A stretch of DNA of 59,020 nucleotides from contig WAKQ01000010.1 of the NCBI GenBank assembly GCA_015523295.1, forward strand, positions 1 to 59,020, given 5' to 3'. The notes under the pieces were generated by a model. It worked only from the letters and a program-made list of their open reading frames with translations, was not told the origin of the DNA and did not search any database. Positions 52,904 to 57,289 of this stretch are shown here, piece after piece. Source of the DNA: Desulfurococcales archaeon. Its GTDB lineage: Archaea > Thermoproteota > Thermoprotei_A > Sulfolobales > NBVN01. Positions within the stretch are counted from its first letter, which is position 1, and each line of letters opens with the position of its first letter. The position numbers were made by a program, and so were the translations under genes.

Positions 52904-54685
52904 TTATTTAAAGTACTCCTCTCTTAGGTTCCTTCTCTCGTTCTCTAGTAGCTCACCTAGCTGCAGGAGCTTCTCACCAGCCTCTGTGACTCCAACGCGT
53001 CCGAGAAGTCCTAACCCTCTGAGAGCGTTTACAGTCTTCTTAACCTCCTCCACAGAGATGCTGGTGAGTCCTTTCAGGTTGTTGTAGATGATGGTTGTCT
53101 CCTCAACTACAACTCTCTTTATATCTCCCTTAGCCCATACTTTCTTCAGCTCCGTTAAGTTGTCCTTTATGACTGTTAATACCTTATAGAGGGTTGGAGT
53201 TATTGATACCCTCATCTTGATTATTTCTTCCGTCTTACCCAATGAGATCATATCCTTAGCTAGTCTACCAGCATTGGTGAGAATAATGTAGTCGTTGGGA
53301 ATCACCTCAACTAAGCCTTTGAACTCCGCATACCCCAAGTACTTCATCACTATATCATCTTCCTCACCTAGTTCATCTGCGACAGCCTTCACAGCATCTT
53401 TAAGCCTCATACCCTTGGCCGGCGTCTTATGAAGGAGGAGGGAATCATAAATAGTTAGGAAGGGAGTTCTTATTAAACGTGTTGATAGATCGATGATGAA
53501 ATCCCCCCTGCTAGTGATTTCAGAGGATATAAGACCTTCCTCCCTACCTAGGATCACCCACTCAGGGCTTGGAGGATATCCTGCAAGGGCATAGGTGCAT
53601 GCCTTAACCGCTGGTGAGAGAATATCAGTATCTGCATTCCCAAGCCTCTTAACTACCTCCTCACCCTCCGTTGTGAGAGTGTATGCGTCTTTACTTTTAA
53701 TCTCAATCCTCTTCACAAGGCCCACAGCCTCTAAGAAGTGAAGTATTTCACCTATAGTCTCACCAACACCCGAAGCCTCTCTCAACATGCTTTCAACGGC
53801 TGACTCAGGGTTTTTATCGTATAGTTCCTTCACAGCTTTAAGCAGTGAAAGCTCATTAAGCGTGAGTTGAACTGGTAAGATCTTCTTAGCCCTCCTAACC
53901 TGAAGATTAAATCCTTCAACAAGCCTCCTCCCAACCTCGGTAATGGAGCCAGCCTCCCTTAAATGCATACTCTCATACTGATGTTCCTTAAAGGTATCCA
54001 ACTCCTTACTCGTTAAAGCATTAACGACCTCCTCATCGATGAGCAGGACGGATGAGTAGATAGGCATTTCTTTAATGGCTTCTTTAATCTTTCTCCCAAC
54101 ATCCGTGACTACGTACGTAGCCTTACCCTTAATGGGAGGGGAGATTCTAAGTAACCTGCTGGCTTCTAACGCATGGATCACGTTATTTCCATAGCCTAAG
54201 GCGTCCCTGAAAGCAACCAAGTCATCGTAAAAAGCTGGCCCCGAAGGCAATCCTTGGATAAATTCAGAAATTTCAGGGGTTAAGTAGATTAGAGGCCTTG
54301 CCAAACTGTAAGCTTGAAGAACTTTCGACGCTACATCGCTTAATCCACCGTCCTTGATAAACCCCCTAGAAGACAGCAGCTCTCTCCATTCGTCGGGAAC
54401 ATACTCTGTCTCTCTAGTCAATTCAAGCGCATATATTATTGATGAATTGACCCACGGGTCAGAGACCTTAATCCCGGCTTCCCTAAACGCGTCCCTCAAG
54501 AGTCTGCCAGCTTCAGTCAACCTAACTACATCGCCCTTCCTTTCAACCAGCCCCATAATATGGAGCTCCATAACCCGTTTTATAAGGTGCATACGATTAA
54601 CACTTGAAAGCTTCACAAGCTCCTCCAGGCTACTAGACTCATCTAATGAATCTAAAACCCTAAGATGCTCTTCGACAACATACAT
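52904..54685 (-). CDS. DUF505 family multi-winged-helix protein
   Basis: The 593 residues contain four or more repeats of a winged-helix unit ending in a LTEAGRLL- or VTDVGRKI-type motif (near residues 55-62, 195-205, 340, 465 and 570). This organisation is that of archaeal DUF505, restricted to a subset of archaea, with no known function. Multiple winged helices imply DNA or protein binding. It sits alone between pyk and tRNA-Thr. Confidence 0.72.
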   Translation of the reverse strand: MYVVEEHLRVLDSLDESSSLEELVKLSSVNRMHLIKRVMELHIMGLVERKGDVVRLTEAGRLLRDAFREAGIKVSDPWVNSSIIYALELTRETEYVPDEWRELLSSRGFIKDGGLSDVASKVLQAYSLARPLIYLTPEISEFIQGLPSGPAFYDDLVAFRDALGYGNNVIHALEASRLLRISPPIKGKATYVVTDVGRKIKEAIKEMPIYSSVLLIDEEVVNALTSKELDTFKEHQYESMHLREAGSITEVGRRLVEGFNLQVRRAKKILPVQLTLNELSLLKAVKELYDKNPESAVESMLREASGVGETIGEILHFLEAVGLVKRIEIKSKDAYTLTTEGEEVVKRLGNADTDILSPAVKACTYALAGYPPSPEWVILGREEGLISSEITSRGDFIIDLSTRLIRTPFLTIYDSLLLHKTPAKGMRLKDAVKAVADELGEEDDIVMKYLGYAEFKGLVEVIPNDYIILTNAGRLAKDMISLGKTEEIIKMRVSITPTLYKVLTVIKDNLTELKKVWAKGDIKRVVVEETTIIYNNLKGLTSISVEEVKKTVNALRGLGLLGRVGVTEAGEKLLQLGELLENERRNLREEYFK

Positions 54686-54889: not shown

Positions 54890-55945
54890 TTAGTAATCTG
54901 TTTTGGCGAGCTTATGGCTGATTTTAATGCCTGTGAGCGTTTCATATGCTTCGATAGCTTTTCTGTAAGGAAGCCCCTCGATCAATGCTCTCCCACTCCT
55001 GAATATTATAGCTCTGGACTTATCACTTAGCTTGAGCTTTACAGTGTAGGGGTTTGATGCTATAACCTTCGTTTTCTGCCTTCTTTTCAGTAATAGATTG
55101 AGGTCAATTTCCACTGGCTCTGGAGGTGTGATTTCGATTACGTTATTCTTCCCGCATGAAGGCTTGACTATTGGGATGAAATCCTTACCTAGAAGCTCGA
55201 ACTTTCTGTGCTGGCACGTAGGACATTCTGGGTTCTTGGCTACATGTATCTTCCTTACATCTAGTTCCCTGGAATCTATGAGGTGAAGGGTGCTCCAATC
55301 CTCCTCCTTGGTTAGCCCCAGGAGGTGTTTAACAGCTAGAGTGAGGGATGCCGATGTCACCATCTTAACAGCCATGGGTGTCACCCCTAACACCCTACAC
55401 CTCCTACTCCCTCCACTTATTGAGAGGCATTTGAAGCATGGGCCTCCTGCCCGAGTGTTAATTAGCCATGAATTCCCATACCATGATTCAACCCCGGTCA
55501 TCACCCACGGTATTCCATGCTTTACAGAGAACTCATTTATCAACAGTCTTGAGTCCATATTATCGGTGGCATCGATTATGAGGTCGTAGCCCTGTAGAAG
55601 GTTCTCAATGTTCAAGGGATTCACCTCATCCACTACGGGCTCAACTTGTGTGGAGGTGTTCACTTCAACGATCTTTTGGGCGCATGAGATCGCTTTAGGC
55701 ATTGCTTTAAGTGCATCATCCTCTGTGAAGAGTGCGGTTCTGTATAGATTACTCCATGACACTACATCCTTGTCTATGACTTTCAAGGTTCGGATGCCTA
55801 TCCTTGCTAACGCTTCAGCAAGGTGGGTGCCGGTAGCACCGCAGCCTACAATTACTACCTTAGACCCCATTAACCTGGTTAATGAGGCCTCTGTAAACTC
55901 GTTGACCAGTTTAAGCCTGGTAAAACGATCTTCGTTGACGTTCAA
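54890..55945 (-). CDS. E1-like ubiquitin/MoeB/ThiF-family adenylyltransferase
   Basis: The Rossmann loop VVIVGCGATGTHLAEALAR (GxGxxG) with VIDKDVVSWSNLYR and LIIDATDNMDSR match the ThiF/HesA/MoeB superfamily. Zinc-type cysteine pairs are CFKC (about 174-177) and CPTC (about 240-243). A further C-terminal 90-residue module ending AIIFRSGRALIEG resembles that of archaeal UbaA proteins. It activates a ubiquitin-like or sulfur-carrier protein by adenylation for thiolation or conjugation. No partner small protein is adjacent. It follows the encapsulin gene by 69 bp on the same strand. Confidence 0.86.
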   Translation of the reverse strand: MNVNEDRFTRLKLVNEFTEASLTRLMGSKVVIVGCGATGTHLAEALARIGIRTLKVIDKDVVSWSNLYRTALFTEDDALKAMPKAISCAQKIVEVNTSTQVEPVVDEVNPLNIENLLQGYDLIIDATDNMDSRLLINEFSVKHGIPWVMTGVESWYGNSWLINTRAGGPCFKCLSISGGSRRCRVLGVTPMAVKMVTSASLTLAVKHLLGLTKEEDWSTLHLIDSRELDVRKIHVAKNPECPTCQHRKFELLGKDFIPIVKPSCGKNNVIEITPPEPVEIDLNLLLKRRQKTKVIASNPYTVKLKLSDKSRAIIFRSGRALIEGLPYRKAIEAYETLTGIKISHKLAKTDY

Positions 55946-56014: not shown

Positions 56015-57136
56015 TTACTTTTTTTCAAGGAGGGCTATCGAGTAAGGCAATTTTATCCTTGGAGCTATTGTCTCCCATGCCCTGAACACATGTTGCGAGT
56101 CCTCTGGTCCTAGATAGTCTACTCTGAGATCCGTTCCTACGACTATGTCTATAGCTGAGGAATTCGCTGAGAGAACTATGACCTTGTCTGGCGGTATGGC
56201 TGTAGTAGTAATCACCTTGTTGACTAGGGCCTTTATCCTGTTGAGTTCCATAACCCCAGTTCTTTCATGTACTGATACAAGGTCAGCATACCTTACAGGG
56301 TTCAAGACTAATACGTAGGGTTCTGGAGCCCCCACTTTAGCGAGCTCCGAGATAGCATTGGCTACGTTATTTACTGCACTCCCACTAACTCCCCAGTCAC
56401 TAAGGTCTAGCTTTAAGGAGTCCTTGAAGGTGAGGAGCCCTGGAATACCTGACTCTTCATCGCCTTTGAGGAGGAACTCATCTTCTAAACGTCCAAGTCT
56501 TGATGCGGCGTAAAGTGTGCTTGAGGATATCGGCGTTTTCCCTAATCTCCTCAATGACGCTATGTCACGTTCGGCTATGCTGAACTTAACACTTAGTTCC
56601 TTCAAAGGAATCAGCTTTCTTGAAGCGGATTTTATGAGGTCTCCTACCTCAACTACTTCAAGAGGTATTGCCTCAACCCCTTCCCCTAATTCTATTGAGG
56701 TGAAGGCATCCCTAAGTTTTCTGGAGGAGGTGAAGGCATCCTTAAATGCTTTGAGTAGGGATGCCCATTCATCCTCTTTAAACATCTCTGGTGTTTGGTG
56801 CTCTACTATAGAGGCATTCCTGTCTGATGGTGGGTCATCTTGGACTTTAATTCCTGTGAGCTCAGCTACCTCGCTGCTGCCTGCCTTAAGCTCTTCAATT
56901 TGCTCTGGATCGACCGACTTTAAAAGCGTTAGAAATTCACCTACATGTGTCTTCTCTTCCTTCGCTATATCTTCAAATACTTTGCGTATATCTTCTCTCT
57001 CAATAGAGTTGGCGAGCTGGTAGTAAAGATTAATAGCGTCGAGCTCTGCGATAATGCCCAATCTTAAAGCCTGAGCAACTTCTGATGGCCCTAACTTCCT
57101 ATCCTTGGGAAGGTCTAGGGGGTTCTTTGAGAGCAT
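56015..57136 (-). CDS. ferritin-like / encapsulin fusion shell protein
   Basis: Residues about 20-75, numbered from the GTG at 57148, form a ferritin-like helix pair with Glu35 and ExxxH (Glu65, His68), the EncFtn di-iron pattern. After a linker (about 90-120), the rest matches family 1 encapsulin, an HK97-type shell subunit: RKLIPLKELSVKFSIAERDI, SGIPGLLTF, and C-terminal FRAWETIAPRIKLPYSIALL. This fused layout is known from Pyrococcus-type encapsulins, where the shell stores oxidised iron. I prefer the ATG 57136, preceded by GGGTG, over the GTG 12 bases upstream. Assembly into a compartment is inference. Confidence 0.87.
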   Translation of the reverse strand: MLSKNPLDLPKDRKLGPSEVAQALRLGIIAELDAINLYYQLANSIEREDIRKVFEDIAKEEKTHVGEFLTLLKSVDPEQIEELKAGSSEVAELTGIKVQDDPPSDRNASIVEHQTPEMFKEDEWASLLKAFKDAFTSSRKLRDAFTSIELGEGVEAIPLEVVEVGDLIKSASRKLIPLKELSVKFSIAERDIASLRRLGKTPISSSTLYAASRLGRLEDEFLLKGDEESGIPGLLTFKDSLKLDLSDWGVSGSAVNNVANAISELAKVGAPEPYVLVLNPVRYADLVSVHERTGVMELNRIKALVNKVITTTAIPPDKVIVLSANSSAIDIVVGTDLRVDYLGPEDSQHVFRAWETIAPRIKLPYSIALLEKK

Positions 57137-57289
57137 ATTCTTTAACACCCTTAATTACTAATTAGCAGAAGGTTCTAAAAAGTACTCACCTGGCCATTTT
57201 AGATAAGTAACTTCACGCGAGGATTTATTTAACTTGGTTTAGGATATTATCACAAGAGCTCGAATTATGGGAGAGCAGCGTGATGATGC

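What the first reader, a model, noticed from the sequence alone, without database searches (positions are those of the whole stretch)
56015..57148. Ferritin-encapsulin fusion in a likely Thermoproteota-type genome
A family 1 encapsulin shell domain is fused to an N-terminal EncFtn-like helix pair with Glu35, Glu65 and His68 in place. Such fusions are known from Pyrococcus/Thermococcus-type archaea but are sparse elsewhere. Divergent from the gene is a small membrane protein; downstream on the same strand is an E1-like enzyme. The membrane protein and E1-like enzyme could be cargo- or control-related, but that is untested. The domain layout is seen in the sequence, iron storage follows from the known family, and any partner role is inference.
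Basis: partly seen in the sequence, partly recalled or inferred. Interest (0 to 1): 0.82.

Follow-up and report, generated by a model that had tools for sequence, protein, structure and literature searches.

The report
Archaeal self-loading iron-storage shell protein
The gene encodes a protein that is both an iron-oxidising ferritin and the wall of a virus-like protein cage; this is a known kind of iron store, common in heat-loving archaea, and its neighbouring genes are not part of it.

Summary
Window 56015-57148 (-) encodes an EncFtn/Flp ferritin-like domain fused to a family 1 encapsulin shell. It matches the Pyrococcus furiosus virus-like particle protein end to end (2e0z, E 2.6e-48), passes NCBIfam's family 1 encapsulin cut-off (139 bits against 100), and its AlphaFold shell matches 2e0z with TM 0.88. 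Glu35, Glu65 and His68 are invariant in all 72 fusions compared plus PfV. The ATG at 57136 is the likelier start.

Two parts of the interpretation fail. The fusion is not rare: 72 of 114 full Flp loci in the same order are fused, and the literature already says 'mostly Crenarchaeota'. The neighbours are not partners: relatives of the E1-like enzyme lie beside sulfur-transfer genes, unlinked to encapsulin, and the membrane protein has one convincing relative among 60 genomes.

So: a new member of a known kind. One wider point may be new. The other 42 loci hold an intact Flp domain in genomes with no intact shell gene, nine of them single-contig. One (G108) is syntenic on both sides with fused relatives; another (G109) keeps a decayed shell remnant. 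Shell loss looks recurrent.

The parts
56015..57136 (-). Flp-encapsulin fusion gene, preferred ATG start, 373 aa; the listed GTG start at 57148 gives 377 aa
56852..57136 (-). EncFtn/Flp ferritin-like domain (residues 5-99 of the 377-aa reading): two long antiparallel helices H21-48 and H52-79 plus H81-98
   Evidence: PDB 5n5e E 3.3e-26; flp HMM 1e-47; model
57044..57046 (-). Glu35 codon (ferroxidase ligand, Glu32 of R. rubrum EncFtn)
   Evidence: 73/73 fused and 42/42 stand-alone domains
56954..56956 (-). Glu65 codon (ferroxidase ligand, Glu62 of R. rubrum EncFtn)
   Evidence: 73/73 fused, 41/42 stand-alone
56945..56947 (-). His68 codon (ferroxidase ligand, His65 of R. rubrum EncFtn)
   Evidence: 73/73 fused, 41/42 stand-alone
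56777..56851 (-). linker, residues 100-124, mostly low confidence (pLDDT under 50 at 103-116)
56018..56776 (-). family 1 encapsulin shell domain, residues 125-377, HK97 fold
   Evidence: Pfam PF04454 and NCBIfam encap_f1; TM 0.88 to 2e0z_A
54890..55945 (-). MoeB/ThiF-type E1-like adenylyltransferase; downstream neighbour, judged NOT part of the system
   Evidence: no family match; 1 convincing relative in 60 genomes

Best explanation
The protein is a self-loading iron-storage nanocompartment subunit of the known archaeal Flp-fusion family 1 encapsulin class. The C-terminal HK97-fold domain is expected to assemble into an icosahedral shell (T=3, 180 copies in P. furiosus). Because each subunit carries an EncFtn domain at its N-terminus, assembly places up to 180 of these domains on the inside, with no cargo peptide needed. 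Pairs of the domain build a di-iron site from Glu35, Glu65 and His68 of each partner, oxidise Fe(II), and the ferric mineral collects in the shell, buffering iron and peroxide/oxygen stress. Shown here: both domains, their order, the ligands, the predicted shell fold and the family membership. Inferred from the family: assembly, T number, ferroxidase activity and iron storage. The adjacent E1-like enzyme and membrane protein are unrelated neighbours.
For: Full-length match to PfV, 2e0z. Family cut-offs passed for the shell. Shell fold TM 0.88 to 2e0z, mean pLDDT 85.7. Ferroxidase residues invariant across 72 fusions plus PfV. The motif D60-IAK-E64-E65-K-T-H68 is exactly the archaeal fusion form DxxxEExA(T)H given in PMC11202242. 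Relatives with this architecture sit beside a second ferritin-like protein, flavodiiron-like and peroxiredoxin genes, which fits iron and oxidative-stress roles.
Against: No assembly, iron content or activity was tested. Decamers of the Flp domain do not fit T=3 symmetry (noted in PMC11202242), so the inner arrangement is unsolved. Pfam's EncFtn-like model is below its cut-off (20.4 against 27 bits), although PDB and NCBIfam EncB-family matches are strong. The linker here is longer than in PfV (45 against 34 residues between comparable points, by my count).
Confidence: 0.93

Rival explanations
1. The gene is a domesticated or decaying capsid gene of an HK97-type provirus that happens to carry a ferritin-like fusion, with no present iron role.
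For: HK97 fold; the Sulfolobus relative was first described as a 'fossil record of an HK97-like provirus' (title cited in PMC8346489).
Against: Open frame without stops; ferroxidase ligands invariant across 72 fusions plus PfV; the genes read around it (50-59 kb of the window) are ordinary cellular ones such as pyruvate kinase-like, Mrp-like, ThiF, CorA.
Confidence: 0.03
2. The E1-like enzyme, and perhaps the divergent membrane protein, form a working unit with the encapsulin, for example by modifying the shell or a partner protein.
For: E1-like gene directly downstream on the same strand. A ferritin-like protein that accompanies many fusions ends in an invariant Gly-Gly, the kind of tail that E1 enzymes activate, and this genome has one.
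Against: E1 relatives in eight other genomes lie apart from Flp/encapsulin, mostly beside SufS- and TusA-like genes. Among 110 compared loci only one other has an E1-like gene nearby, in the opposite orientation and 34% identical. The membrane protein does not recur. The Gly-Gly protein is on another contig in this genome.
Confidence: 0.04

Closest known systems
Pyrococcus furiosus virus-like particle / Flp-fusion encapsulin (PfV, PDB 2e0z; EncFtn domain 5n5e)
   Same: Same domain order, same ferroxidase residues, same shell fold, full-length alignment
   Different: Longer Flp-to-shell linker; moderate identity; different lineage
Flp-fusion encapsulins of Crenarchaeota (Andreas and Giessen 2021, PMC8346489)
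   Same: Same class, same phylum; [quoted passage not shown]
   Different: In this genome no such neighbour is next to the gene; the conserved ferritin-like companion is on another contig
Two-gene EncFtn/encapsulin systems (R. rubrum, M. xanthus EncA/B/C, H. ochraceum)
   Same: Same EncFtn fold and family 1 shell
   Different: [quoted passage not shown] here it is part of the shell protein
Short EncFtn without targeting peptide (s-FLP, N. europaea NE0167, PDB 3k6c; 'Non-EncFtn' in PMC5012862)
   Same: Resembles the 42 stand-alone Flp genes found in relatives
   Different: The relatives' stand-alone genes are archaeal and many are close to the fused form (up to 67% identity to the window's domain)

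Membership tests
Family 1 encapsulin | Shell sequence scores above curated family models | tested here: met
   PF04454 134.8 bits (cut-off 24.3), encap_f1 139 bits (cut-off 100)
Family 1 encapsulin | HK97 capsid fold | tested here: met
   AlphaFold model, TM 0.76-0.91 (target length) to the listed solved shells, 0.88 to 2e0z_A
Family 1 encapsulin | Self-assembly into an icosahedral shell | not testable with these tools
   needs expression and electron microscopy
Archaeal Flp-fusion encapsulin | Flp/EncFtn domain fused to the N-terminus of the shell in one open frame | tested here: met
Archaeal Flp-fusion encapsulin | Archaeal motif DxxxEExA(T)H | tested here: met
   D60 IAK E64 E65 K T H68 against the motif quoted in PMC11202242
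EncFtn ferroxidase | Glu/Glu/His ligands on two antiparallel helices | tested here: met
   Glu35, Glu65, His68 on H21-48 and H52-79; invariant in all fusions compared
EncFtn ferroxidase | Pfam EncFtn-like model above its gathering score | tested here: not met
   20.4 against 27 bits. The stand-alone Flp of G108 only just reaches it (27 bits); the profile is probably tuned to bacterial members (inference). The direct match to the solved P. furiosus EncFtn domain 5n5e is strong
EncFtn ferroxidase | Metal-dependent dimer/decamer and Fe(II) oxidation | not testable with these tools
   needs purified protein
E1-like/encapsulin partnership | Recurrent gene neighbourhood | tested here: not met

The most novel reading that the evidence does not exclude
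In Thermoproteota the encapsulin shell has been lost repeatedly from the fusion while the ferritin-like domain was kept with its ferroxidase site intact. An EncFtn-type ferroxidase would then work without any shell, although the R. rubrum EncFtn needs its shell for iron storage. A ferritin-like companion with an invariant WxxxWxxSPWHGxPGG tail may take part. The window's gene is the ancestral, shell-bearing state.
Probability: 0.5. Interest if true: 0.5.

Novelty: new member of a known kind. Interest (0 to 1): 0.27.

Why it matters
The window gene adds one more lineage to a published class and corrects the idea that the class is rare outside Pyrococcus/Thermococcus. The comparison around it is more useful. 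42 relatives carry the same ferritin-like domain, nearly all with intact ligands, but no intact shell gene, including nine single-contig genomes and one case with conserved flanks on both sides. That makes a concrete question testable: what does an EncFtn ferroxidase do without a shell, and why is the shell dispensable?

Tried and rejected
E1-like enzyme as partner: no recurrence; relatives sit with sulfur-transfer genes. Membrane protein as partner: almost no relatives. Stop-codon readthrough between Flp and shell, suggested by 'TAG inside' flags in the genome search: rejected, because there is no shell behind those stops. Gly-Gly tail of the companion as an encapsulin loading peptide: unlikely, since the tail is equally conserved in genomes without a shell. 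Shell loss by simple deletion in genus g117: not shown, because fused and stand-alone genes lie at unrelated loci. Fold of the companion: the model gave only weak ferritin-type matches with very large rmsd, so nothing beyond 'ferritin-like four-helix protein' is claimed.

Full report
What is there. Window 56015-57148 on the minus strand is a 377-codon open frame. Its C-terminal part is a family 1 encapsulin shell: Pfam Linocin_M18 134.8 bits, NCBIfam encap_f1 139 bits against a cut-off of 100. Its N-terminal 100 residues are an EncFtn/Flp domain: PDB 5n5e, E 3.3e-26; the whole protein aligns with the P. furiosus virus-like particle protein 2e0z from residue 5 to 375, E 2.6e-48. Relatives and PfV start at the methionine that is residue 5 here, so the ATG at 57136 is the likelier start; residue numbers below keep the GTG numbering.

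Active site and fold. Glu35, Glu65 and His68 correspond to the R. rubrum EncFtn ligands Glu32, Glu62 and His65 (residue names from PMC11202242 and PMC5012862; correspondence by alignment). The stretch DIAKEEKTH is the archaeal fusion form of the motif given in PMC11202242. The three ligands, with Tyr42 and Glu71, are invariant in 72 fused loci plus PfV and nearly so in 42 stand-alone ones. AlphaFold with 29 relatives gives mean pLDDT 85.7, two long helices for the Flp domain, a low-confidence linker at 103-116 and an HK97-type shell. The shell matches solved family 1 shells, with TM 0.88 (target length) to 2e0z_A.

Mechanism. As in PfV, shell assembly should place the fused ferritin-like domains inside, so cargo loading is built into the subunit. 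Fe(II) would be oxidised at the dimer interface and the mineral kept in the cage. The anatomy is shown; assembly, T number and iron storage are inferred from the family. That 180 fused domains do not divide neatly into decamers on a T=3 shell is a known open point (PMC11202242).

How common it is. Of 214 genomes in the same order, 124 match. Of 114 loci with a full Flp domain, 72 are fused and 42 are stand-alone. Fusions also occur in several other families of the phylum. [quoted passage not shown] Hence 'sparse elsewhere' is wrong.

Neighbours. The E1-like gene is a MoeB/ThiF-type adenylyltransferase. Its relatives in eight other genomes (G001, G004, G010, G018, G021, G032, G049, G058) are not beside encapsulin genes. 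The seven whose surroundings were read lie beside cysteine desulfurase (SufS-like), TusA-like or MoaE-like genes, recognised by eye from their sequence motifs. The divergent membrane protein has one convincing relative, in G006, among 60 genomes. Neither is supported as a partner.

Stand-alone Flp genes. All 42 genomes with a stand-alone Flp were searched with the shell family; 41 have no match and G109 has only a 62-position remnant. Nine of them are single-contig genomes: G035, G045, G046, G048, G055, G108, G124, G126 and G170. In G108 the genes on both sides match those around the fusion genes of G057 and G038 from the same genus, and no trace of the shell remains; in G109 an intact Flp is followed by a stop-ridden stretch with a shell fragment. 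On a careful tree of Flp domains without long branches the fused/stand-alone state changes at least 14 times (5 forced by well supported branches), and one clade of stand-alone genes is rejected (p-AU 0.016). The tree rests on 95 columns and is poorly resolved, and in genus g117 the two forms lie at unrelated loci. Recurrent loss of the shell is therefore likely but not proven. The direction (loss rather than gain) rests on PfV being fused, on the G108 synteny and on the G109 remnant. Stand-alone EncFtn relatives as such are known ('Non-EncFtn' in PMC5012862; s-FLP in PMC11202242), and the R. rubrum work found that EncFtn must be inside its shell to store iron.

A ferritin-like companion. In 12 fusion loci and 3 stand-alone loci of the order, a 154-165 aa ferritin-like protein follows directly downstream on the same strand. 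It has 22 invariant columns and its C-terminus follows the pattern WxxxWxxSPWHGxPGG, ending in Gly-Gly in every copy aligned. It is present in the window's genome on another contig, behind a ferredoxin-like gene (G000:C22). It is present in 69 of 124 genomes with an Flp match and 25 of 90 without one (my count of typed lists, which omits several weak matches). Genome incompleteness and shared ancestry inflate such a test. Its tail is equally conserved without a shell, so it is probably not a shell-loading peptide.

Verdict. It is a new member of a known class; its rarity and the partner hints do not hold. The possible new point, repeated shell loss with the ferroxidase kept, lies in the relatives and deserves a proper study.

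Noticed in passing
L086:4016-4333 (G108) against L053 and L055 (G057, G038): Stand-alone Flp gene at the same locus as fused Flp-encapsulin genes of the same genus, with matching genes on both sides; the shell part is gone.
   Followed up: yes
L085:1618-2506 (G109): Intact Flp gene followed by a stop-ridden stretch that still holds a recognisable encapsulin shell fragment (36% identity over 66 residues).
   Followed up: yes
L195:6043-6531 (own genome, contig C22) and the loci of alignments A2/A3: Ferritin-like protein of about 160 aa with a near-invariant C-terminus WxxxWxxSPWHGxPGG, directly downstream of Flp-encapsulin fusions in at least 12 loci; no NCBIfam model passes its cut-off for the copy in the window's genome.
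   Followed up: partly
L164:3304-5593 (G200): Flp-encapsulin fusion gene apparently interrupted by a 367-aa transposase-like open frame lying between the Flp and shell parts.
   Followed up: no
L144:310-1434 (G179) and G196:C2:696228-697211: Fusion genes broken by one stop (G179) or five stops (G196), possible pseudogenes or assembly errors.
   Followed up: no
L053:6585-8580 and L086:4837-6821: Flavodiiron-like and peroxiredoxin genes lie downstream of the fused or stand-alone Flp gene in genus g19 (names judged from sequence by eye), suggesting an oxidative-stress gene group.
   Followed up: no
window 52904-54685 (-): DUF505 protein of 593 aa with predicted winged-helix stretches, two genes downstream of the encapsulin.
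   Followed up: no
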